A DNA stretch of 23,713 bases from a virus. The notes beneath the pieces were generated by a model, which did not search any database, had not been told where the DNA came from, and worked only from the letters and a program-made list of their open reading frames with translations. Of this stretch, positions 1,011 through 20,517 are shown in pieces (within the stretch, counting starts at the first letter, position 1; every line of letters starts with the position of its first letter). The translations under genes were made by a program, and so were the position numbers. Location of the stretch: the IMG/VR virus record IMGVR_UViG_3300025697_000151, positions 1 through 23,713 of that record; one strand, written 5' to 3'.

Positions 1011-1466
1011 TCAAGTCACCTCCAATTTCTTTTTTGTTAAATATTTTAGGTTTGCAATCTTCTGACAGGCACGACATTCTCGCCCACCACCTTTCTTGTT
1101 ATATGTGTTTTCCGGAGTATATTCATGACCTCGTTTGCAGTGCGTTTTATTGCGGTTGTGATCCCCCAAGCTACGGGTTCTCCAAGAAGTTAAAACCTCT
1201 TTAATCCGATCTTTCCTTCTTTGACTCATGAAAGGATATAGGGTCATCATCAACCCAGCGGCCCTTCCCCCTGCCACATACCACTTACTGTAAATATGGC
1301 CCTGTGTATGGGTCCATGTATAAACGTGGCCACCAAATAAGCTTAGAAGCTTTTCAAGCGGCTCAGTGGTCATTTGACAAGCATTAACATAAGGACAGGT
1401 AGAATAATGGAAACTACCATCCCCCTCAATGAATCCCGCAGCCCACGCAATGTCTAACGTATTCAT
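1011..1466 (-). CDS. LAGLIDADG-type homing endonuclease, free-standing
   Basis: The N-terminus contains WAAGFIEGDGSF, a clear LAGLIDADG helix with the catalytic acidic residue in GDG. Only one such motif is present, so the active enzyme would be a homodimer. Near residues 108-137 a Cys/His cluster (HCKRGHEYTPENTY, then CRACQ) resembles the small zinc-binding or DNA-binding tails seen on phage homing enzymes. I start it at ATG 1466. A TTG at 1472 is in frame and overlaps the capsid stop codon, but a GAGAG ribosome site fits the ATG better. The gene sits tightly between the capsid gene and the decoration gene without interrupting either. It is therefore a free-standing mobile endonuclease, not an intron or intein ORF. 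Activity and target site are unknown. Confidence 0.85.
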   Translation of the reverse strand: MNTLDIAWAAGFIEGDGSFHYSTCPYVNACQMTTEPLEKLLSLFGGHVYTWTHTQGHIYSKWYVAGGRAAGLMMTLYPFMSQRRKDRIKEVLTSWRTRSLGDHNRNKTHCKRGHEYTPENTYNKKGGGRECRACQKIANLKYLTKKKLEVT

Positions 1467-1468
1467 GA

Positions 1469-2332
1469 TCAACTCTCACTGCACGCAATTTCAATAACCT
1501 GTTCTTCTTCGATGCGGGTTGCACCAACGTCCATTTTGAGCCATACTTGCCAGGCGTAATTTTTGTCAGCACGCTGGTCAATCTTGGCCTGGATATCGGT
1601 CAAGGTTCCCAAGCCGATTGCGCCCTTTGCGTAGGCGTAGCAATAACGAACTTCCGACGTAAGCTCCAGGAGCTGAGTCCGGATGAACGTGAAGCCCATG
1701 AAGGTGTTGATCTTACCCTCAACAAGCGCTTTCACGGTGTTGTAATCTGCGCTCTTGACTTCCGTGGTCTCCAGGAGGTTTGTGATTTGACGAGCGGCAA
1801 CGACGATATACCTCTCCATGTCCGGATCAACCTCGTCCGCATCCAGTTGCTCCTTGGCCGTCATGAGCTTGGTTAGGGTCAGGCCAACGCTGCCATGCGC
1901 GATTTTCTGGGCTGCCGGCAGGACGACCTCAGTTGTTCCGGTCTGACCTGAATACGAAGAACCGCCCAGGGCGGTAATGATCACCGAATCTTTGGCCCTG
2001 TTCATGGCCATGCGGGCGATCTGGTTATAGTAGTTTTTGGGATCGACGAGCATCCGGACCTGATCTTCCTTGTCAAGCAGCGTAGCCCACACGCGAGGCG
2101 TGGCAGTCTGCTTTCTCCGGGAATGATCAACTTCAATGTTCGGGGTGTCATCGTGGCGGGTTACGAGTTCAACGGCCTCAGTGGAGCCCATCCGCTCCCA
2201 ATACAAGGCATCTCCTGTCACCTGTACCGGTGGGATGGTCGTTCCCTCAAGCCGACTATTCTTCTGCTGGGAAAGAATACGGATTGTATTCTGATACTGC
2301 TCAACGTAATATTGTTCAATTGTTTCTGACAT
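1469..2332 (-). CDS. Major capsid protein (Phage_capsid_2-like)
   Basis: This is a 287-aa protein starting MSETIEQYYVEQYQNTI, followed by segments LYWERMG, DTPNIEVDHSRRKQT, VWATLLDKEDQVRML, DPKNYYNQIARMAMNRAKD and ALGGSSYSG. This order is familiar from phage capsid proteins of the Phage_capsid_2 type, thought to have an HK97-like fold and to form the icosahedral shell. The start is ATG 2332, with GGAGG placed at the correct distance in TTTTTGGAGGATATT. An in-frame TTG four codons upstream lies inside that ribosome site and is rejected. Context agrees: scaffold upstream, decoration downstream. Homing endonuclease genes lie directly before and after it, a known way of targeting an essential conserved gene. 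Confidence 0.88.
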   Translation of the reverse strand: MSETIEQYYVEQYQNTIRILSQQKNSRLEGTTIPPVQVTGDALYWERMGSTEAVELVTRHDDTPNIEVDHSRRKQTATPRVWATLLDKEDQVRMLVDPKNYYNQIARMAMNRAKDSVIITALGGSSYSGQTGTTEVVLPAAQKIAHGSVGLTLTKLMTAKEQLDADEVDPDMERYIVVAARQITNLLETTEVKSADYNTVKALVEGKINTFMGFTFIRTQLLELTSEVRYCYAYAKGAIGLGTLTDIQAKIDQRADKNYAWQVWLKMDVGATRIEEEQVIEIACSES

Positions 2333-2431: not shown

Positions 2432-2860
2432 TTACCTGCAAGTAGTCAGATTCCCATAACGGGGATTGCCTGACATATATTTTTTTGTCCAATACCGTCC
2501 TTTTTGGATAGCATCTTGGACATTATCAAGTGGTGTGCCTAAAAAGAGATGCTTTGGGTTTACACATCTGGGATTATCGCAACGATGCAAAACATTCATC
2601 CCTGCGGGAATTTCCCCATTGTGGATAACCCAAGACATCCTATGGGCCAACCAATAAATATTCCTAAACCATATCCTCCCATAACCTTTGGGAAGAGCAT
2701 TTTTTGTCCATGCCCAACATCCGGCATCCTGGTCGACCTTAAACCCCCGATACAATCTCTCTTTTGGCGTAGCCCGTGGTCGTTTTCCTCTTTCGTCACG
2801 GTGCTTCCGATAATAGCGACGGTCGGTTTCTCTTCGCACCTGGATGTTAGTGCTTGGCAT
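2432..2860 (-). CDS. HNH homing endonuclease (HNH_3-like)
   Basis: This 142-aa protein has a basic N-terminus rich in Arg and Lys, then [34 protein letters not shown] and [19 protein letters not shown]. The last segment is the HNH_3 signature: His of LHRC, Asn of CVNP and His of KHLF form the beta-beta-alpha metal site, and the paired Cys residues fit a structural zinc. The C-terminal [10 protein letters not shown] is also typical of phage HNH proteins. All catalytic residues appear intact. ATG 2860 lies one base after the upstream stop, with GGAG inside the upstream gene, so it is translationally coupled into the head operon. It is probably a free-standing homing endonuclease near the capsid gene. 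Confidence 0.88.
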
Positions 2861-12014: not shown

Positions 12015-12122
12015 ATGAAAAGTAAGAGGCTGGAACAATTAATTGTATGGCTTTGCTGGGCCGTTGTTTTCACCGCCTTTGGGTACTTTTGGCATTTTCG
12101 TGCAACTGGAGGATGGTCATGA
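12015..12122 (+). CDS. Small single-span membrane peptide, 35 aa
   Basis: This is the first ORF after the rightward promoter. AAAAAGGAGAGAATC gives an excellent ribosome site before ATG 12015. The peptide starts MKSKRLEQLIVWLCWAVVFT and includes a hydrophobic Trp-rich span to about residue 26, then a short polar end. Its stop overlaps the next start (ATGA), so it is part of the operon. It resembles no family I know. A small early peptide acting at the host membrane is a reasonable guess. Confidence 0.65.
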   Translation: MKSKRLEQLIVWLCWAVVFTAFGYFWHFRATGGWS

Positions 12123-12289
12123 AAATCACATTTACATGGTGGAGCTGGAGAAACGGGCAGAATCGGAAGGAAATAGTCCTAACGAAAATCAAAAACGGCT
12201 ACCCTTCCAAGAAGTCATACAAGCGGTTCGAGCAGGCCGTGGAAGAACTTAACGGGAAGAAAATCAGGATAGTGGTAAAGGAGGTTTAA
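12119..12289 (+). CDS. Hypothetical small basic protein, 56 aa
   Basis: I choose ATG 12119 because GGAGG lies 6 nt upstream and the ATGA overlap with the previous ORF implies coupling. A longer reading from 12047 would overlap the membrane peptide. The product is basic and Trp-rich at its start (MKITFTWWSWRNGQNRKEIV), then KNGYPSKKSYKRFEQAVEEL and a beta-like end, KKIRIVVKEV. The layout (strand, helix, strand) could bind nucleic acid. It is directly followed by the putative annealing protein, with no intergenic base. The family is not recognised. Confidence 0.65.
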   Translation: MKITFTWWSWRNGQNRKEIVLTKIKNGYPSKKSYKRFEQAVEELNGKKIRIVVKEV

Positions 12290-13438
12290 ATGGAACAAAC
12301 AGCACAAGATATAAACGCAACATTGGAAAGATTCAAGAAAGAAGGCGCTCACCTATTATTGCCGTCAACGTACATTTCAGAACTCCCGCCATATCACAAG
12401 ATCGTGGTGGATAAAGTGTTTTTGGCAGCCGATACGGATGAGCGGGACGTGTACATGCAGGATAAAGGATATGGTCAGAAGCAAGCTAAATACGCTATTG
12501 CCCGGCAGGGCCTCATGAAGCTGGCAAATGCCGCAGGTATCATGTGGGACCCTGCGAGGTGTATCCGGTTGGACGACCGGAGGGACAGGGGTTACGTGGC
12601 TTACCAGGCCGTGGCTGGTCTGAAAAAAATTGACGGCTCCCCCCTCTTCTTCAAGGCCGAATATGATCTTGATTTTGAGGTGATTGAGGATGAGATTACG
12701 GAGGGGTACGAGAATAAACGTAAAGGGTTTGACGGTAGCGAAAGAGACAGCGGAAAGTGGTGGCATAAAATGGACGAAGCCGCACAGGACGCCTATATCG
12801 ATAAATGTATCCGCCGGGACATGCTCCAAAAGCGGAAGCATAAATCGAAACTTGCAGAGACCGGAGCCATGACCCGCGTTGTCCGGGCACTTCTTAACCT
12901 CAAATCGACCTACACGGCGAAAGAGCTTGAGAAACCGTTTATCGTGGTCAGGACGGTGTTCCAGCCTGACTATTCAGATCCTGATACAAAGAAAGCCTTG
13001 GCCGAGGCATCAGTGCAGGCCGTTGCCGGAGTGTTTGGCCCTGCCAGGCAACTACAATTGACGGATGCCCCGGTCAACGTAACCCCCGTGGCCACAACTG
13101 AGTTCCCGGACGATATCCCAGAGGCGCCAGAAGCTGAACCCGGAGATGAGGCCCCGGAAGAGCCAGAGGGTGAAGGGTTCCCAGACCCCGTGACTGCCGA
13201 TTTCCTGACCCTGAGCGTAGAGGATCGAATTACAACCATAGCCGAGGCAGCGAAGCAGCGGGGGATTAAAGACAATAGGGCACTATGGGAGTTCTATCAA
13301 GCCGAGACCGGGAAAAACCCCCCGAAAACCGTCAAAAAGATGCCGGAAGAGGATATGCTTAAATTGTGGCGGGCTCTTATGGCTTTGGAGATAGAAGCGC
13401 CAAAGACTGAGATCCCCGACGACGATATCCCTTTTTAA
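12290..13438 (+). CDS. Putative ssDNA-binding/annealing (recombination) protein with SSB-like C-terminal tip
   Basis: This 382-aa protein has a core at about 20-250: LLLPSTYISELPPYHKIVVD, KYAIARQGLMKLANAAGIMW, DDRRDRGYVAYQAVAG, RRDMLQKRKHKSKLAETGAM and TRVVRALLNLKSTYTAKELE. The order (beta-rich part, then a Lys/Arg helix with 'AETGAM.RVVRALL') is reminiscent of phage single-strand annealing proteins of the RecT/Sak/Erf kinds, in which such a helix lines the DNA groove. This is a likeness, not a proven homology. A Pro/Glu-rich linker follows (about 265-300), then a small helical region and the extreme end IPDDDIPF, nearly identical to the end of bacterial SSB. Strong AGGAGG at the start. Neighbours are SbcD, SbcC and a RecB-like nuclease. 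Confidence 0.55.
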   Translation: MEQTAQDINATLERFKKEGAHLLLPSTYISELPPYHKIVVDKVFLAADTDERDVYMQDKGYGQKQAKYAIARQGLMKLANAAGIMWDPARCIRLDDRRDRGYVAYQAVAGLKKIDGSPLFFKAEYDLDFEVIEDEITEGYENKRKGFDGSERDSGKWWHKMDEAAQDAYIDKCIRRDMLQKRKHKSKLAETGAMTRVVRALLNLKSTYTAKELEKPFIVVRTVFQPDYSDPDTKKALAEASVQAVAGVFGPARQLQLTDAPVNVTPVATTEFPDDIPEAPEAEPGDEAPEEPEGEGFPDPVTADFLTLSVEDRITTIAEAAKQRGIKDNRALWEFYQAETGKNPPKTVKKMPEEDMLKLWRALMALEIEAPKTEIPDDDIPF

Positions 13439-13476: not shown

Positions 13477-14691
13477 ATGAGAATACTTCATTTTTCAGAC
13501 GTTCACGTGGAGGACAAGGCAATCGAAGAGGTACGGACTTGCTTAGGCTATATCGTGGAGCAGGCCCAGGACCTTAAGCCCGACCTTATCGTTATGGCCG
13601 GGGACACATTCAATAACCGACTTGTCAAGCTTGATTCACAGGCCGCAAAGCTGATTTTTGAGATGTACGCGAGATTAGCCGATATCGCGCCAATGGTAGT
13701 GATTGTTGGTACACCATCGCATGATGGGCTCACGGTGCAGGTCCTAAGCCACATCATAGGCAGATATCCTATCTATGTTTCGGATTTCCCGGAGCAGATA
13801 TTTTTTACGGGTACGGCCTTCTTTAGTGCCCCCCCAGTGATGGTAGACTGCGAAGCGGTAATCTCCTGCATCCCTACCCCCACAAAACAATACTGGCAGG
13901 AATACGGCGGGAAACACCAATCCGCAAAGGAAACTGACGCAGAGGTCGCCAAAGCCATGGGTGTAATGTTGGCGGACTTCGGAGCTAAAGCCTCAGAATA
14001 CGATTGCCCCCATATCCTGGTCGGTCATTTCTCTGTGGGAGGGGCCTTTGTCTCTGAAACCCAGCAGCTTATAGGAGTCGATATTGAGCTTTCCAGGGAT
14101 CAGATAGGGCTTGCTAACGCGGATCTGGTTTGCCTGGGGCATATCCATTTACGGCAGCGGATAGGGGAAAACATCTTTTATTCCGGGTCCATTTACCGGA
14201 AGGATTTTGGAGAATTAGAGGCGAAGGGTTTCTATCTCCATGAGGTTGATCCGGGTATACCAAAGCAGTACAAGTCCCAATTCATCGAAACCCCAACCCG
14301 GAAGCTGGTTAAAATCAAACACGATTTTATAGATTCCCCTATTTCAGAGCTTGATTTGTCTCTATATTCTCTCGATGAAGACGAGGTAAAAGACGCCGTT
14401 GTGAGAGTTGAAATCAAGGCCTATCAAGACGACGCCGACAAACTCAAAGAGGAGGACATCAAATCTTTCTACATGTCGGCAGGTGCCCGAATGGTTGATC
14501 TTAAAATTCAACGTGTTCCACGGGAAACAGTGCGAAGCGCGAAACTCCTTGAACTCCAAACCCTTCGGGAGAAGATCCGGGAGATGGCCCTCTTACGGAA
14601 AGAAGATGCTCCGGAAAGCATTTTGATCAAAGCAGACATGCTGGAGGGTATGACGCCGGATGCGATTTATAAGGAGATAGGCAATGCCTAA
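13477..14691 (+). CDS. sbcD: SbcD/Mre11-like DNA exonuclease subunit
   Basis: This 404-aa metallophosphoesterase pairs with the SbcC-like ATPase to process DNA ends and hairpins. Motif I is FSDVH (Asp8, His10). Motif II is MAGDTFNNR (Asp43). Motif IV is LVGHFS (His184) and motif V is CLGHIHLRQ (221-224), followed by YSGSIYRKDFGE, typical of Mre11. Motif III is GTPSHDG (78-84), where most family members have GNHD, so the usual Asn is lacking. I believe this variation exists in other phage proteins, but it is notable. AGGAGG lies just before ATG 13477. The C-terminal part (after about 300) should bind SbcC coiled-coil roots. Confidence 0.85.
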   Translation: MRILHFSDVHVEDKAIEEVRTCLGYIVEQAQDLKPDLIVMAGDTFNNRLVKLDSQAAKLIFEMYARLADIAPMVVIVGTPSHDGLTVQVLSHIIGRYPIYVSDFPEQIFFTGTAFFSAPPVMVDCEAVISCIPTPTKQYWQEYGGKHQSAKETDAEVAKAMGVMLADFGAKASEYDCPHILVGHFSVGGAFVSETQQLIGVDIELSRDQIGLANADLVCLGHIHLRQRIGENIFYSGSIYRKDFGELEAKGFYLHEVDPGIPKQYKSQFIETPTRKLVKIKHDFIDSPISELDLSLYSLDEDEVKDAVVRVEIKAYQDDADKLKEEDIKSFYMSAGARMVDLKIQRVPRETVRSAKLLELQTLREKIREMALLRKEDAPESILIKADMLEGMTPDAIYKEIGNA

Positions 14692-14884
14692 GCTCATGCC
14701 GTTAAAACATATCTGTGCTTACTGTACAGGGTACGGTTTCAAGGGAGGCAATCCCGACGGCCCAGGGCAGGCATATTGTAAAGATTACAAGAGATGGTTC
14801 CCGGATCAGATGGACCCGGAGCGGACCCCCGCCGGCATGAGAGGCGGGAAATGTAAACGCTGGAAGCATATGGGGGAAAAATGA
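14684..14884 (+). CDS. Cys-rich small protein, 66 aa
   Basis: The ORF overlaps the end of sbcD by 8 bases and is preceded by AAGGAG. Four Cys are spaced as C-x2-C (HICAYC), then one in AYCKDY and one in GKCKRW, probably a single zinc site. The remainder is basic and aromatic (KRWFPDQMDPERTPAGMRGG). It overlaps the methyltransferase start by ATGA. A zinc-ribbon accessory protein is possible, perhaps for one of its neighbours, but I do not recognise the family. Confidence 0.65.
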   Translation: MPKLMPLKHICAYCTGYGFKGGNPDGPGQAYCKDYKRWFPDQMDPERTPAGMRGGKCKRWKHMGEK

Positions 14885-15531
14885 AGTTACTCGATCTATT
14901 TTGCGGAGCCGGGGGCGCAGCTATGGGATACCATAAAGCAGGATTTGAGGTTGTCGGCGTTGATATTCACCCTCAACCTCATTACCCGTTTGAGTTCCAC
15001 CAGGCCGATGCACTTGAATTTCCACTGAAAGGGTTTGACGTGATACATGCAAGCCCACCGTGTCAGGCGTATTCGAGCTTAAAACACATGTGGAATGCAA
15101 AAAAACATGTTGATTTTTTGCCAGCAACGAGAGCTAGGCTTGTTGCATCGAGGCTACCATATATTATTGAAAATGTTAGGGGCGCACCGTTAATAAATCC
15201 CATGGTTTTATGTGGCACGATGTTTGGGCTTCAGACGGCGGACGGCGATGCCGAATTGTGGCGGCACAGGCTTTTCGAGTCAAACATGGGTTTAACCGTA
15301 GACCTGGAATGCAACCATCGGAAATTAAAGAAGGTTATTGGTGTTTACGGCAGTAGTGGTGGAAAATCAGTAAGGGGCGGTACCCAAGGCTTTAGTGTTA
15401 AAAAAAGGCGTGAGGCTATGGGAATCGATTGGATGAATGGGGCGGAATTATCCCAGGCAATTCCACCGGCATACACAGAGTTTATAGGAAAGAGATTAAT
15501 CGAAATATTTAAGAAAGGAGAAAAGGCATGA
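14881..15531 (+). CDS. DNA (cytosine-5-)-methyltransferase
   Basis: This 216-aa protein has motif I LLDLFCGAGG (residues 3-12), motif II GVDIH, motif IV ASPPCQAYSS with catalytic Cys61, and motif VI ENVRG (97-101). Near the end is AIPPAYTEFIGKRL, the family motif X-like segment that completes the AdoMet site. It transfers a methyl group from AdoMet to C5 of cytosine. It is much shorter than restriction-type enzymes (about 330-420 aa), so the target recognition region is minimal, as in many phage enzymes. No restriction endonuclease is adjacent. It probably protects phage DNA or marks it, perhaps relative to the SbcCD and Cas4-like nucleases encoded on both sides. Confidence 0.92.
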   Translation: MKLLDLFCGAGGAAMGYHKAGFEVVGVDIHPQPHYPFEFHQADALEFPLKGFDVIHASPPCQAYSSLKHMWNAKKHVDFLPATRARLVASRLPYIIENVRGAPLINPMVLCGTMFGLQTADGDAELWRHRLFESNMGLTVDLECNHRKLKKVIGVYGSSGGKSVRGGTQGFSVKKRREAMGIDWMNGAELSQAIPPAYTEFIGKRLIEIFKKGEKA

Positions 15532-17813
15532 AAATCAACAACTTGAAGCTACGCGGATTTATCGGCGTGAAAAAAGGACTTGGATTGGATGAAATCGAAT
15601 TAGATCTCTCCGGTCTTTCCGGGCTCATTGCCCTGTCTGGGCAGAACGGCGCTGGAAAAACTTCAATCCTGGAATCATTACAGCCATACCGGACCCTAGC
15701 CAGTCGATCAAAGGCCCTGCAGCATCATGTATTCATGCGGGACGCCTGCAAGGAGCTTGACTTTGACTTTCAGGGAGACAACTATCGAACCAAAGTCTTG
15801 ATTGATTGCGACTCCGGCAGGCAGGAAGGGTACATTCGGAAAAACGGTGTCAGCGAAATTGATGGTAAGGTCCGCAACTATGACGCATACATTGAAGATC
15901 TTTTCGGTTCAAAGGATCTCTTTTTCAATTCGATCTTTTGTGCTCAGAACGCCTCGAAGCTGTCGGATTTGACGACCGGGAAGCTCAAGGAACTGTTCTC
16001 GGAGTTCCTGCGCCTTGACCAGTACGTAGCCCATGAAGCCACAACAAAGCAGTGCCTCGTCATTCTAGGATCTCAGGCCAGCGTCTACGACCGACAGGTT
16101 GAACGCATTCAGGAGAGCGTCCGGTTGTTGATAGGGGTAGACGAGCAGCTTGAGGGGGCGATTAACGCCAAAACAGAGCAAACAGCCTTGATTACGCAAA
16201 TTGAGCACAGTATCGTGTCCATGGCGTCCAGAATCGTAACCACTGGCGAAATAATCGCAGTCAATGCGATCATGGAAGACCGGGCAGAGGATTTCCGGGG
16301 AAGGATTAAGGCCTCGGAGGCTGGAATTGAAAACGCATCTGACGAATATAACGCCCGGGTGGACGGATTACGCGGCAAATTACGGAAGGTCAAAGCCGAC
16401 ATTTCCACCTTCGATAAGACCCTGGAAATGCGGGATGAGATTGAAGCCGCAACTTCCAGAAAGACAGAGCTGAATGAGAAGATAATAAATCAGACAACGG
16501 CCATTGAACGATGTCAATCTGATCTTTATGCGATCAGGGAAAAAATCCACCAACATGATCAAACCATTCCACCGTCCACCAAACCCCACAAGCGGGAAAA
16601 CGACATTCCTCTGTTGAAGTTACAGATCCAGAATGCCGAAAGCAAGGCCCAAGATCTTGAAAAGAGGGACCCGGACTGCACGTCAAAGACTTGTAGCTTC
16701 ATCGAGGGCGCTTTGCAGGCTCAGGGCTCGGTTGAAGGCTTGCGGGCAGAACTGAAAGCGGTTGGATGGGAAGTCGCGGAACACGACCGGAAGGTTGAAA
16801 CCATCCTGAAAGAAGCCGCCGGAGCCAAAGCCGAGATGCAGGGCATTGAAGACGAAATATCACGTACCGTGAAGATTCTGCAAAAACGGCTTTCCGCCTC
16901 GAAAGTTGAATATGACGAATGTGCGCGACGAGCGGCCCGTCACGACGATTTGAGAGTAGCCATCGCCCAGAAGAAAACCGCCCAAGCCCGCGCAGAGGAA
17001 TTAACCGCCCAGGGAATGAAGGAAAAGACCGTTTTTGATGTAAGAAATGACAACTTATGGGCAGAACTTGACAAAATGCGGGCGTCTTTGGACGAAATCA
17101 TGGCGAAAATTGACAGTTCCGCAAAAGGCACCCTCACGGCGCTTGAGATTACCCATGAAGACAAGCTGGCCGAGAAAAAAGGGATCATGGAGCAGGTTGA
17201 CGCCCTATCTTCCGATATTCAGCAATACCAGCGGGAGATAGAACAGAGGAACGCATACAGGAAACAAGAATCCGAGTTGAACTTGAAACAAGCGAGCATC
17301 CAAACCCAGATAAAGGAATGGACGTATCTAAGGGACGCCCTATCAAAGGACGGACTCCGGGCCCTGGAGATTGATGCCGTAGCTCCATCGATCTCAGCCT
17401 ATGCAAACCAGATCCTTTTCAACACCTTCGGCCCTGCTTATTCCGTGAAGTTGCGGACCCAGGACGATGAGGGACGTGAGGTTTTGGACATCCTGGCTAT
17501 AGAAGAGGACGGCAAGGAAACGCTGTTAGAGGATCTGTCAGGAGGGGAAAAGGTCTGGAGCTTAAAGGCGCTTCGGCTGGCCATGACGTTGATAGCAAAG
17601 CAAAAAAGTGCACGACAATTTTTGAGCGCCCTTGCAGACGAAGAGGATGGCGCCCTTGACGCAGGAAACGCCCAGAACTTCATTCATCTTTATCGGTCTT
17701 TCATGGACGCGGGTGGCTTCGAGGATTGCTATTTCATCAGTCATCGACCTGAGTGCATCGCCATGGCCGACCATGTTTTAGAGTTTGGGAATGGTGGGGT
17801 CTCGATCAATTAA
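15528..17813 (+). CDS. sbcC: SbcC/Rad50-like ATPase
   Basis: This 761-aa SMC-type ATPase has Walker A GQNGAGKTS at 38-46, long coiled coils on either side of a mid-protein hook (DPDCTSKTCSFI, Cys384 and Cys389), the ABC signature LSGGEKVWSL at 670-679, a Walker B region around ALADEEDGALD (702-712) and an H-loop SHRPE (His739). The protein is shorter than cellular SbcC (about 1,000 aa), as in other phage versions such as T4 gp46. It should pair with the SbcD-like protein to process ends or hairpins. The hook is C-x4-C, not the usual C-x2-C. The start overlaps the methyltransferase stop (ATGA). Confidence 0.9.
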   Translation: MKINNLKLRGFIGVKKGLGLDEIELDLSGLSGLIALSGQNGAGKTSILESLQPYRTLASRSKALQHHVFMRDACKELDFDFQGDNYRTKVLIDCDSGRQEGYIRKNGVSEIDGKVRNYDAYIEDLFGSKDLFFNSIFCAQNASKLSDLTTGKLKELFSEFLRLDQYVAHEATTKQCLVILGSQASVYDRQVERIQESVRLLIGVDEQLEGAINAKTEQTALITQIEHSIVSMASRIVTTGEIIAVNAIMEDRAEDFRGRIKASEAGIENASDEYNARVDGLRGKLRKVKADISTFDKTLEMRDEIEAATSRKTELNEKIINQTTAIERCQSDLYAIREKIHQHDQTIPPSTKPHKRENDIPLLKLQIQNAESKAQDLEKRDPDCTSKTCSFIEGALQAQGSVEGLRAELKAVGWEVAEHDRKVETILKEAAGAKAEMQGIEDEISRTVKILQKRLSASKVEYDECARRAARHDDLRVAIAQKKTAQARAEELTAQGMKEKTVFDVRNDNLWAELDKMRASLDEIMAKIDSSAKGTLTALEITHEDKLAEKKGIMEQVDALSSDIQQYQREIEQRNAYRKQESELNLKQASIQTQIKEWTYLRDALSKDGLRALEIDAVAPSISAYANQILFNTFGPAYSVKLRTQDDEGREVLDILAIEEDGKETLLEDLSGGEKVWSLKALRLAMTLIAKQKSARQFLSALADEEDGALDAGNAQNFIHLYRSFMDAGGFEDCYFISHRPECIAMADHVLEFGNGGVSIN

Positions 17814-17843: not shown

Positions 17844-18542
17844 ATGAAAATTTCAGTGAAAAACCTATCATCGATCGCAATGCCGGATTTCTGCCCCAGG
17901 TGCTTCTGGATCAAGCAGAACGTGAAAAACATCCCCTTCCAAATCTTCCCAGGGGTGTTTTCCGCAATAGATAGTTGGACGAAAAAGGTTGTCCATTCCT
18001 ATTTTGATACCACAGGGCATGCGCCTGAATGGCTCCCAAATCTTGCAAAAGCCGTCGCATACCACAAAGCCCTCCATTGGTCGAAATTTCGGAGAGAAGA
18101 TTCTGAAACCGGGATAGAGACGAGAGGGGTAGTCGATGACCGCTTTGAGATGGAAGATGGTTCGTTCCATATCCCGGATTATAAGACATCGAAGTTGTCA
18201 GGGAGCCAGGACAAGCTTTTCCCGCTGTACGAAGCTCAATTGAATGCCTACGCCTGGATACACGAAGGAGGGTTTGGCCACGTCTCGGAGATAGATCTGA
18301 TCTACTGTTCGCCACAAACGGATCTATCTGACCTCGAAGAAAGTGAAGGTTTTTACCATGGAGGGTTTCGGATGAAATTCGAGGGAACGATAGTTCCGGT
18401 TGAGATTAAGCCCGACTTAATCCCTGGCCTATTCAAGCGGGCAAAGAGCATTCTTGATATGGACCGGCCACCGGCTGGGGTTGCTGGTTGCAAGGACTGC
18501 ACCGCCATGGAAAACTTGCTGGCTGTATGTGGGAGGGAGTGA
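17844..18542 (+). CDS. PD-(D/E)XK nuclease, Cas4/RecB-like, with Cys cluster
   Basis: This 232-aa protein contains GVVDDRFEME (Asp98/99), FHIPDYKTSK (Asp112, Lys114) and YEAQLNAYAWI (Gln132), which are motifs II, III and QhxxY of the RecB nuclease family. Four or five Cys bracket the core: CPRC (17, 20), GCKDC (216, 219) and Cys229. This Cys cluster pattern is found in Cas4, AddB and phage single-strand exonucleases, where it binds an iron-sulfur cluster. It would degrade or trim DNA ends, 5' or 3' unknown. AAAGGAGATAAAA precedes the ATG. No cas1, cas2 or repeat array is in the window, so it is not a CRISPR adaptation gene here. It fits the recombination module. Confidence 0.85.
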   Translation: MKISVKNLSSIAMPDFCPRCFWIKQNVKNIPFQIFPGVFSAIDSWTKKVVHSYFDTTGHAPEWLPNLAKAVAYHKALHWSKFRREDSETGIETRGVVDDRFEMEDGSFHIPDYKTSKLSGSQDKLFPLYEAQLNAYAWIHEGGFGHVSEIDLIYCSPQTDLSDLEESEGFYHGGFRMKFEGTIVPVEIKPDLIPGLFKRAKSILDMDRPPAGVAGCKDCTAMENLLAVCGRE

Positions 18543-18544
18543 TT

Positions 18545-18841
18545 TTGGGAAAACAATCAATATCAGATAGGCTGAAAATACTCCATGCACAACACCCAGA
18601 TGGCTACGCGGGATCTCCTTTGGCTCCATTGCCGCGTTACCCGGAAAAGGGTGATGAAGTGGAACGTGAAGCCAAAAAAGATAATACACCAATCCGTGCA
18701 GGGCGGTTCTTAATATCTCTCTTCGACGGAACGGAAGACGAGGGCCTGTTGATTACCGATACGGAAACAGGAAAAGGGATGCGGTTTAACGGTGATGTCC
18801 TAGAAAACGCTATTCACGGTATGTGGAATGAGCATTTTTGA
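18545..18841 (+). CDS. Hypothetical small protein before the helicase, about 98 aa
   Basis: The start is uncertain. GTG 18539 overlaps the nuclease stop (GTGA) but lies only 2 nt from GGAGG. TTG 18545 is better spaced from GGAGGGAG and is given here. The product has LKILHAQHPDGYAGSPLAPL near its start, and then RFLISLFDGTEDEGLLITDT and ETGKGMRFNGDVLENAI, an alternating strand pattern suggestive of a small beta-rich fold. It has no known motif. Its stop (TGA, 18839-18841) overlaps the helicase ATG. It may be an accessory protein of the adjacent nuclease or helicase. The family is not recognised. Confidence 0.6.
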   Translation: MGKQSISDRLKILHAQHPDGYAGSPLAPLPRYPEKGDEVEREAKKDNTPIRAGRFLISLFDGTEDEGLLITDTETGKGMRFNGDVLENAIHGMWNEHF

Positions 18842-20517
18842 TGGGGAGTGAAAAGCGATCCATGCGCCAACACCAAAGAGAGTTCAAGGAAGCCATCGAC
18901 GGCGTTATAGCAGGATCAGGAACTAAGGAAGTCCTGGTCCACGTGACGCCAGGCGGAGGCAAATCGGCCTTGCCGATCATTGCCGGCAGGCTGATCACCG
19001 CAGGCCTGGCCGATGCGATTTGCTGGGTGGTTCCCCGGAAATCTTTACAGGATCAAGGAGAAAGGAATTTTATAGATCCCTTCTTCCGGAACATGCTCGG
19101 CCATTCTTTGACAATCCGCTCCAGTACGAACGAAATTAATCCATGCAGGGGCCTTCATGGTTTCGCGACCACCTATCAGGCTATCGGCATGGATGAAAAA
19201 CAGACTGTATTAAGGGATTTTTCAACCAAAAGATATATCCTGATCCTGGACGAATTTCATCACGTAGAAGAGGATGGGGAATGGTTCAATGCCATGGCCC
19301 CCATAGCCAGGAAAGCGGCTTTCCTGATCCTTATGACCGGGACCCTTGAACGAGGCGATAAAAAGCCTATTGCATGGGTGAAATATGAAAACTCGAAACC
19401 TGTCTTAGACGCAAACAGCATCCGGTATGATCGAGAAACCGCACTCAAAGAAAGGGCGATCCTGCCCATCGAGTTTACCCTTTTCGACGGTCATGTGGAA
19501 TGGAAAACGAAAAGCAGCGGGCATAAATCAGGTCTATTATCAGAACGGACCCTTGATGCAGGGGAGGCGCTGGTCACAGCTCTGTCAACCGGGTTTTCCG
19601 ATATGCTTTTAGCTAAAGGAGTCCAGCACTGGAAAGAGACTCTACACCAGCACCCCGGATCTAAACTCCTGATAGTCACAGCCGATTTTGATCATGCGAA
19701 AAAGGCAACAAAAAGGCTCAAAGAGCAGGGACTTTATGTTAAAATTGCCACTTCTCACGACTCGCCACGGGCTCTCCGAAACATAAATGAATTCAAGTTC
19801 GGGAGGCTCGATATCCTGGTCAGCATTGCCATGGCATACGAGGGTTTGGATGCACCACAGATCAACCACATTGTCTTCCTAACCAGAATTCGGTCAAGAC
19901 CATGGGTGGAGCAGTGTATCGCCCGTGCTGTCCGAATTGACCGCCATGCAGGCCCATACAATACCCAGAGGGCGTACATTTTCGCCCCAGACGACTTTCT
20001 TTTCCGGAATGTTGTGGAAGAAATTGAATCAGAGCAGCTTTCAGTGATCATGAAGGCCCAAGAGGAAAGGGGCGAAAGAAGAGAAAACGGAACCGGCGCC
20101 ATCAGGGAGCCGGATGTCATACCGTTAGGATCGATATTAACAGCGGAGAGGTCCTTCTCTTTGGGAGGGGAGAATCATGGGGCCTCTCCGTATCAAACCC
20201 CGACAGATCTTGAGCACGATCTCCGGCATGATATCGAAGAACACGTTCGGGACTTCTGCTTTAAGAATTATTACAGAATCGAAAGGATCAACGCGGAAAT
20301 TAAAGACGCGTTCGGGAAGCCCAGGGCAGAAATGACACTCTCCGAGTTGCGAAACACCCTCGTCTTCATCCGGGACGCTTACCCCCTTAACGGCAACTCG
20401 ATCATTTCACAGGTGAGCCAGCCCAGGGGGAAAGGACGCCGGAAGAGCGCCAAGGCAGAAGAGGTTGAACCGCCAGACCAATTAGAGCTTTTTGGGGCTA
20501 CTCCCTATCATCCTTGA
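18841..20517 (+). CDS. SF2 DEAD/DEAH-box helicase with C-terminal clamp-binding-like motif
   Basis: This is a 558-aa protein. Walker A is TPGGGKS (residues 36-42), preceded by a Q-like region MRQHQREFKE. Motif Ia is VVPRKSLQDQ and motif II is ILDEFHHVEE (DEFH, 137-140). Motif III is MTGT (165-168), and motif VI QCIARAVRID is near residue 360. These are all of the SF2 class (UvrB/type-III-like helicases). After residue 520 a basic linker leads to QLELF at 547-551, which matches the bacterial sliding-clamp-binding consensus QL(S/D)LF. The start overlaps the upstream stop (TGATG). TTG 18838 is an alternative but lies within that overlap. The helicase probably remodels DNA in the recombination set. 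Confidence 0.88.
   Translation: MGSEKRSMRQHQREFKEAIDGVIAGSGTKEVLVHVTPGGGKSALPIIAGRLITAGLADAICWVVPRKSLQDQGERNFIDPFFRNMLGHSLTIRSSTNEINPCRGLHGFATTYQAIGMDEKQTVLRDFSTKRYILILDEFHHVEEDGEWFNAMAPIARKAAFLILMTGTLERGDKKPIAWVKYENSKPVLDANSIRYDRETALKERAILPIEFTLFDGHVEWKTKSSGHKSGLLSERTLDAGEALVTALSTGFSDMLLAKGVQHWKETLHQHPGSKLLIVTADFDHAKKATKRLKEQGLYVKIATSHDSPRALRNINEFKFGRLDILVSIAMAYEGLDAPQINHIVFLTRIRSRPWVEQCIARAVRIDRHAGPYNTQRAYIFAPDDFLFRNVVEEIESEQLSVIMKAQEERGERRENGTGAIREPDVIPLGSILTAERSFSLGGENHGASPYQTPTDLEHDLRHDIEEHVRDFCFKNYYRIERINAEIKDAFGKPRAEMTLSELRNTLVFIRDAYPLNGNSIISQVSQPRGKGRRKSAKAEEVEPPDQLELFGATPYHP

What the first reader, a model, noticed from the sequence alone, without database searches (positions are those of the whole stretch)
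12290..13438. Possible new single-strand annealing protein family with an SSB-type C-terminal tip (DDDIPF)
The N-terminal core has no catalytic motif, but a Lys/Arg helix and AETGAM.RVVRALL segment look like phage annealing proteins. The linker and final IPDDDIPF copy the layout and end of bacterial SSB (E. coli ends DDDIPF), the tip that recruits exonucleases, RecO, PriA and others. The protein sits directly before SbcD/SbcC and a RecB-like nuclease. A protein that binds or anneals ssDNA and also mimics the SSB tip could compete with SSB or call host repair proteins to phage DNA.
Basis: partly seen in the sequence, partly recalled or inferred. Interest (0 to 1): 0.78.

Follow-up and report, generated by a model that had tools for sequence, protein, structure and literature searches.

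The report
Phage DNA annealer with SSB tail
This phage gene encodes a member of an unnamed protein family that looks like a very distant relative of DNA strand-annealing proteins (RAD52/Red-beta), sits next to the phage's SbcD-SbcC nuclease genes, and ends in the same short peptide that bacterial SSB uses to recruit repair enzymes, which matters because known phage annealers read that peptide on SSB rather than carry it.

Summary
The ORF is real: 12290-13438 (+), 382 aa, good ribosome site, stop directly after ...IPDDDIPF. It belongs to a family known only as phrog_13782 ("unknown function"). I collected about 27 members. In 16 of 18 members with the same architecture the protein ends in an SSB-like tip (DDDIPF, EDDIPF, DDVPY, EELPFE and similar) with synonymous codon changes. 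Among 381 distinct ORFs of 100 aa or more in the fetched loci, only these 16 and two true SSBs end this way. A second type carries a C-terminal zinc ribbon instead. SbcD and/or SbcC follows in every locus with enough flank. An AlphaFold core model (pLDDT 87) has human RAD52 as top PDB hits, but weakly (E 0.02-0.08, TM 0.2-0.35). A profile comparison picks out one Red-beta segment (score 27; controls 16 or less). No Pfam, NCBIfam or PDB sequence match exists, and none of 24 virus records carrying the family has RecT, ERF, Rad52 or Sak. Most likely: a divergent annealase paired with SbcCD, whose tip engages SSB-binding partners. Annealing and tip binding are untested. SSB-like tips also occur on other phage proteins, including one Red-beta homologue.

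The parts
12290..13438 (+). 382-aa protein of the phrog_13782 family; predicted divergent single-strand annealing protein with SSB-like C-terminal tip
   Evidence: ORF and translation; phrog_13782 E=8.9e-36; relatives
12280..12284 (+). GGAGG ribosome-binding site, 5 nt before the ATG
   Evidence: read directly
12290..13045 (+). N-terminal core, residues 1-252: predicted alpha/beta annealase-like domain
   Evidence: AlphaFold2 core model pLDDT 86.6, pTM 0.77; Foldseek top hits human RAD52
12776..12904 (+). residues 163-205: basic helices with RKHKSKLAETGAMTRVVRALL, the segment that matches Red-beta; holds invariant A193, R196, R199
   Evidence: invariant columns; hhalign to Red-beta profile score 27.3
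13046..13183 (+). residues 253-298: acidic, proline-rich, low-confidence (probably disordered) linker, net charge -12
13184..13387 (+). residues 299-366: small helical C-terminal domain; replaced by a zinc ribbon in one branch of the family
   Evidence: AlphaFold2 model; family comparison
13418..13435 (+). residues 377-382, DDDIPF: SSB-like C-terminal tip
   Evidence: 16 of 18 relatives keep it with synonymous codon changes
13477..14691 (+). SbcD-like (Mre11-type) nuclease gene, conserved partner
   Evidence: PF00149 1.9e-8; phrog_100 SbcD-like 5.5e-27
15528..17813 (+). SbcC-like (Rad50-type) ATPase gene, conserved partner
   Evidence: phrog_77 SbcC-like 6.7e-41
17844..18542 (+). PD-(D/E)XK (RecB-like) nuclease-like gene
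   Evidence: PF12705 E=6.6e-4, 20.1 bits, below the 22-bit cut-off
18838..20517 (+). SF2 helicase gene, also present in several related loci
   Evidence: PF04851 2e-10, PF00271 2.7e-9

Best explanation
It is a phage recombination protein: a divergent single-strand annealing protein of the broad RAD52/Red-beta kind that works with the phage's SbcD-SbcC (Mre11-Rad50-like) nuclease. SbcCD opens or resects ends; the N-terminal core coats the resulting ssDNA and pairs it with a complementary strand. Through the flexible acidic linker and helical domain each subunit displays an SSB-type tip (DDDIPF), so that a coated strand looks like SSB-coated ssDNA to proteins that read that peptide (host RecO, ExoI, PriA and others, or phage proteins). 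Shown here: family membership, conservation of the tip, gene association with sbcD/sbcC, absence of other known annealers in the same records. Inferred from weak fold and profile evidence: annealase fold. Inferred from established knowledge of SSB: recruitment by the tip. It may also regulate DNA binding in cis, as an acidic tail.
For: Tip: 16/18 C-termini, synonymous changes, 0/1879 internal matches; only 16 family members + 2 SSBs among 381 distinct ORFs. Annealase: top PDB fold hits are human RAD52 for the whole model (E 0.06-0.2) and for the core alone (top 11 hits all RAD52, E 0.024-0.075, prob up to 0.89); viral library hits with names include Rad52/59/22, ERF and 'essential recombination function' proteins. 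Profile comparison of the core: Red-beta 27.3 (P 0.005) against 9.7-16.3 for SbcD, helicase, SSB, DUF669, gp2.5 and reversed controls, at RKHKSKLAETGAMTRVVRALLNLKSTYTAKELE against WQSHPKRMLRHKAMIQCARLAFGFAGIYDKDEAE. Context: SbcD and/or SbcC follows in the window and relatives. Slot: RecT, ERF, Rad52, Sak absent from 24 virus records with the family; AAA_24 (Sak4-type) none over cut-off.
Against: No sequence match to any annealase family in Pfam, NCBIfam or PDB. Fold hits do not reach E<0.001 in the PDB and TM-scores are 0.2-0.35, under the 0.5 used in PMC11783212. The order of elements has a long helical insert before the last strand. Profiles of RecT, ERF and Rad52 gave no signal. Two members lack a clear tip (L019 AVGF, L220 ENPY) and one clade has a zinc ribbon. 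Virus records are mostly fragments, so absence of other annealers is limited evidence.
Confidence: 0.62

Rival explanations
1. It is a third subunit or regulator of the phage SbcCD (Mre11-Rad50) complex, not an annealase; the tip docks the nuclease to SSB-binding proteins or competes with SSB at DNA ends.
For: The gene is directly or nearly directly upstream of sbcD in almost all loci, often with overlapping ends, in both C-terminal types.
Against: Fold hits point to RAD52, not to known Mre11-Rad50 accessory proteins; the Red-beta-like segment. An annealer next to a nuclease gene is the normal arrangement for phage two-component recombinases, so the neighbourhood does not favour this rival.
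Confidence: 0.15
2. It is an ssDNA-binding or recombination-mediator protein (SSB substitute, RecO/UvsY/Orf-like) that binds ssDNA but does not anneal; the tip makes it an SSB stand-in.
For: SSB-like acidic linker and tip; several DDDIPF-ending phage proteins are other ssDNA-binding proteins.
Against: At least five records carry a separate SSB gene, three of those read in full end DEIPF, DDDIPF and DDVPF, so no SSB substitute is needed there; no OB-fold match.
Confidence: 0.15
3. The tip is only a self-regulating acidic tail (competing with ssDNA for the protein's own basic groove), not a mimic that recruits SSB partners.
For: Linker and tip are strongly acidic; T7 gp2.5 has an acidic tail ending in phenylalanine (DEDGDF).
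Against: The conserved part is the hydrophobic I/V/L-P-F/Y end after one or two acidic residues, with a fixed position at the C-terminus, the feature read by SSB-binding proteins, while the acidic linker itself varies freely.
Confidence: 0.2

Closest known systems
Red-beta (phage lambda Bet) and its family
   Same: Phage recombination gene next to a nuclease gene; the only annealase profile with a signal, at Bet residues about 143-177; N-terminal DNA domain plus a separate C-terminal interaction domain. One sampled Red-beta homologue, Serratia phage Eta Bet, ends DDDVPFE.
   Different: No Pfam-level similarity. Red-beta's C-terminal three-helix domain binds lambda exonuclease and E. coli SSB (PMC8303780); here the protein carries an SSB-like tip itself. 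Lambda Bet has no tip. Partner nuclease is SbcCD, not lambda exonuclease.
RAD52 / ERF / Sak annealase superfamily
   Same: Top fold hits; alpha/beta core in the N-terminal ~250 residues; partner-binding C-terminus.
   Different: TM-scores 0.2-0.35, no sequence-level match; ERF, RecT and Rad52 genes sampled from the same host phylum (33 proteins) have no SSB-like tip.
Bacterial SSB (E. coli SSB, tip DDDIPF)
   Same: Last six residues identical to the E. coli tip, and preceded by an acidic flexible linker.
   Different: No OB fold by sequence or by model; extra helical domain between linker and tip; phages with the family may encode a true SSB as well.
T7 gp2.5
   Same: ssDNA-handling phage protein with acidic C-terminal tail ending in F.
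   Different: Different fold and no profile similarity; tail lacks the I-P-F motif.
phrog_13782
   Same: This is the family the protein belongs to (all 20 members of A5 match it).
   Different: It carries no functional annotation.

Membership tests
phrog_13782 | profile match | tested here: met
   E=8.9e-36 for the window protein; 20 of 20 members of A5
RAD52/Red-beta annealase superfamily | match to a Pfam/NCBIfam annealase model (RecT, ERF, Rad52_Rad22, SSAP_Sak) | tested here: not met
   no hit for the protein or 19 relatives up to E=1
RAD52/Red-beta annealase superfamily | annealase fold (three-stranded sheet crossed by a helix, hairpin, helices) | tested here: inconclusive
   RAD52 is the top PDB hit for the full and core models but E 0.02-0.1 and TM 0.14-0.35
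RAD52/Red-beta annealase superfamily | shared short sequence signature | tested here: inconclusive
   hhalign to a Red-beta profile 27.3, P=0.005, over 34 columns; controls 16.3 or lower; RecT, ERF, Rad52 profiles no signal
RAD52/Red-beta annealase superfamily | ssDNA binding, oligomerisation and strand annealing | not testable with these tools
   needs purified protein
bacterial SSB (PF00436) | OB-fold domain | tested here: not met
   no PF00436 hit in the window record or for the protein; profile score 9.7
bacterial SSB (PF00436) | C-terminal acidic tip ending in I/L/V-P-F | tested here: met
   DDDIPF, conserved in 16 of 18 relatives
bacterial SSB (PF00436) | tip binds SSB-interacting proteins | not testable with these tools
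   needs binding assays
T7 gp2.5-type annealing SSB | gp2.5 fold / sequence | tested here: not met
   hhalign score 15.2, same as controls; gp2.5 not among top 50 fold hits

The most novel reading that the evidence does not exclude
A new, structurally divergent family of phage annealases built to work with an Mre11-Rad50-type nuclease, which instead of reading the SSB tip (as Red-beta and RecT are reported to do) displays its own copy and so takes over the SSB interaction network on phage DNA; one branch of the family exchanged this module for a zinc ribbon.
Probability: 0.35. Interest if true: 0.78.

Novelty: new variant of a known kind. Interest (0 to 1): 0.6.

Why it matters
Published work ties the host range of phage annealing proteins, and of recombineering tools built from them, to recognition of the last residues of the host SSB (PMC10711431; Red-beta CTD-SSB contact in PMC8303780; Sak4 stimulated through the tip of its cognate SSB in PMC5928155). 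An annealase family that carries that peptide reverses the arrangement. If confirmed, it gives a test of whether an annealer needs SSB contact at all when it can recruit SSB partners itself, and a natural annealase-SbcCD pair. It also puts a function on an unannotated phage protein family.

Tried and rejected
Sequence-only routes to a known family failed: Pfam, NCBIfam, PDB phmmer and profile searches gave nothing. Plasmid collection: no match; phage collection: one unannotated gut contig; near-identical phage DNA: none. Profile comparison with RecT, ERF and Rad52 sets from Desulfobacterota: no signal. The idea that the C-terminal helical domain is the Red-beta SSB-binding three-helix domain was tested by hhalign and not supported (E=0.23). 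The idea that the tip stands in for a missing SSB was rejected for at least five records that also encode SSB. The idea that the tip is unique to SSB and this family was rejected: of 78 ORFs ending DDDIPF in an arbitrary first batch from viral contigs only 22 resembled SSB by phmmer; others were SF2 helicases, a processivity factor, other ssDNA-binding families and unknowns, but none was of this family or RecT/ERF/Rad52. Broad alignment A2 was too diverse to seed a collection scan. The tree of the core groups tip and zinc-ribbon members (3 changes each, shuffles 8-9) but deep branches are poorly supported, so the direction of the exchange is not resolved.

Full report
Observation. The ORF 12290-13438 (+) encodes 382 aa and ends IPDDDIPF-TAA. 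GGAGG lies 5 nt before the ATG. The window is a 23.7-kb virus record with head, terminase and portal-type genes on the minus strand and recombination genes on the plus strand. Downstream lie SbcD-like (13477-14691), a small ORF, a short cytosine methyltransferase-like gene, SbcC-like (15528-17813), a PD-(D/E)XK nuclease-like gene and an SF2 helicase.

Family. The protein matches only phrog_13782, function unknown, and nothing in Pfam, NCBIfam or PDB by sequence. Relatives came from viral contigs, a Desulfobacterales MAG (70% identical) and Desulfobacterota genomes (6 of 395 with a match; one of these, L014, is doubtful and was not used). Two architectures share the core. One has an acidic linker, a small helical domain and a C-terminal tip. 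The other, in a set of phages including gut contigs, has a C-terminal zinc ribbon of the C-x2-C...C-x2-C type.

The tip. The ends of the 18 proteins of the first architecture are listed codon by codon: IPDDDIPF, LVEDDIPF, PFDDDIPF, DVEELPFE (twice), DIGELPFD, KPKDDVPY, KDDDGIPF, AKDDDIPF, KTNTDVPY, EPKQDVPY, RIDDEIPF, LPDDDIPF, KESEDIPF, MPDDDIPF, MPEDDIPF, and two weak ones, ATPTAVGF and PDKEENPY. Codons for D, I/V, P and F vary synonymously, so the peptide is under selection. The motif occurs at none of 1879 internal positions of the linker and C-terminal regions of the same proteins, so it is not explained by their acidic composition. Over all fetched loci at that time, 18 of 381 distinct ORFs of at least 100 aa ended in [DE][ILVM]P[FYW] with at most one further residue (or the near variant DDxIPF): 16 family members and 2 SSBs. 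Limits: three ends carry one residue after the F, and some have Y for F.

Tips elsewhere. In an arbitrary first batch of viral-contig hits to a DDDIPF-stop pattern, 22 of 78 ORFs resembled SSB by phmmer. The rest included SF2 helicases, a processivity factor, other ssDNA-binding families and unknowns. So the tip is a module that several phage DNA proteins carry. Among annealases, 33 ERF, RecT and Rad52 proteins sampled from Desulfobacterota had none. Among 11 Red-beta homologues one, Serratia phage Eta Bet, ends DDDVPFE; others end in loosely similar acidic tails.

Fold. AlphaFold2 with 20 sequences gave pLDDT 78.5, with a confident core, a disordered linker (254-297) and a helical C-terminal domain. 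The core alone with 23 sequences gave pLDDT 86.6 and pTM 0.77. Foldseek against the PDB ranked human RAD52 first: 14 of the first 15 hits for the full model and the first 11 for the core, with E 0.02-0.2, probability up to 0.89, TM 0.14-0.35 (one entry higher on its own length). The viral library gave one hit under 0.001 without a name, and named hits such as a Rad52 homologue, ERF superfamily and Rad52/59/22 proteins. This is consistent but weak. Published work takes TM>0.5 as conservation of the annealase motifs (PMC11783212), which is not reached here. The superfamily fold as described in PMC9870868 has a three-stranded sheet crossed by a helix plus a hairpin; the model has two long paired strands (102-112, 118-128), a helix before them (72-82) and a further strand (217-224) only after a long helical insert, so the match is partial.

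Profile evidence. Comparison of the core alignment with profiles built here gave 27.3 (P=0.005) for Red-beta and 9.7-16.3 for all others, including RecT, ERF, Rad52, SbcD, helicase, SSB, DUF669, gp2.5 and reversed alignments. With several profiles tried this is suggestive, not proof. The nine invariant columns (L23, P25, A193, R196, R199, Y208, E212, F217, G250) include two arginines in this helix and no evident catalytic set.

Context. SbcD and/or SbcC genes follow in the window and in all relatives with enough flank, in both architectures; in L015 and L223 one fused gene follows. Genes for RecT, ERF, Rad52 and Sak were absent from all 24 virus records with the family, and AAA_24 (Sak4-type) gave none over its cut-off. 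These records may be fragments. Five records also encode SSB; those read in full end DEIPF, DDVPF, DDDIPF and DDVPF. So the tip does not simply replace a missing SSB.

Mechanism. Best reading: SbcCD processes ends, the core binds and anneals the ssDNA, and the tip on a flexible arm gives the nucleoprotein the same recruiting signal as SSB. [quoted passage not shown] In this family the annealer itself carries the ligand. C-terminal regions of annealases are generally for partner binding rather than annealing (PMC11783212), which fits the exchange of tip and zinc ribbon between branches. Conserved presence of the tip is shown; annealing, partner binding and competition with SSB are inferred.

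Novelty. An unannotated family, probably annealase-like, with a conserved SSB-like tip and an SbcCD partner. Because annealases, SSB-like tips and nuclease-annealer pairs are each known, and a Red-beta homologue with a tip exists, I rate it a new variant of a known kind rather than categorically new. A literature search for the peptide with phage annealers found no report of such a tip on an annealase; only open-licence papers were searched.

Noticed in passing
window 14881-15531 (+): A short cytosine-C5 methyltransferase-like gene (PF00145 matches only its first part; phrog_363 2.7e-38) and a small ORF sit between sbcD and sbcC; L003 and L004 lack an obvious counterpart there.
   Followed up: partly
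window 1011-1472 (-) and 2432-2860 (-): Two ORFs look by eye like homing endonucleases inserted among structural genes: one with a LAGLIDADG-like WAAGFIEGDGSF, one HNH-like ([14 protein letters not shown]).
   Followed up: no
window 12119-12289 (+): A 56-aa gene overlaps the ribosome site of the finding; a similar short protein (WWDWKDGQRRKTV...KNGY) lies upstream in L004.
   Followed up: no
L238 601-1440 (Serratia phage Eta, KC460990.1): An annotated Red-beta homologue ends DDDVPFE, an SSB-like tip on a recognised annealase family member.
   Followed up: partly
L127, L150, L155, L163 (viral contigs): SF2 helicases that end in DDDIPF; L162, a processivity-factor-like protein, ends so too. SSB-like tips look widespread on phage replication proteins.
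   Followed up: partly
L015 8981-12868; L223 5200-9018: Fused gene of about 1270-1300 aa directly after the family gene: SbcC-like by match, with a nuclease-like SbcD start in L015 (MKILHTADWHIG).
   Followed up: no
L016/L023 loci: Annealer-like protein ends EELPFE while the SSB a few genes away ends DEPF or DDDVPF: two different tips in one phage operon.
   Followed up: no
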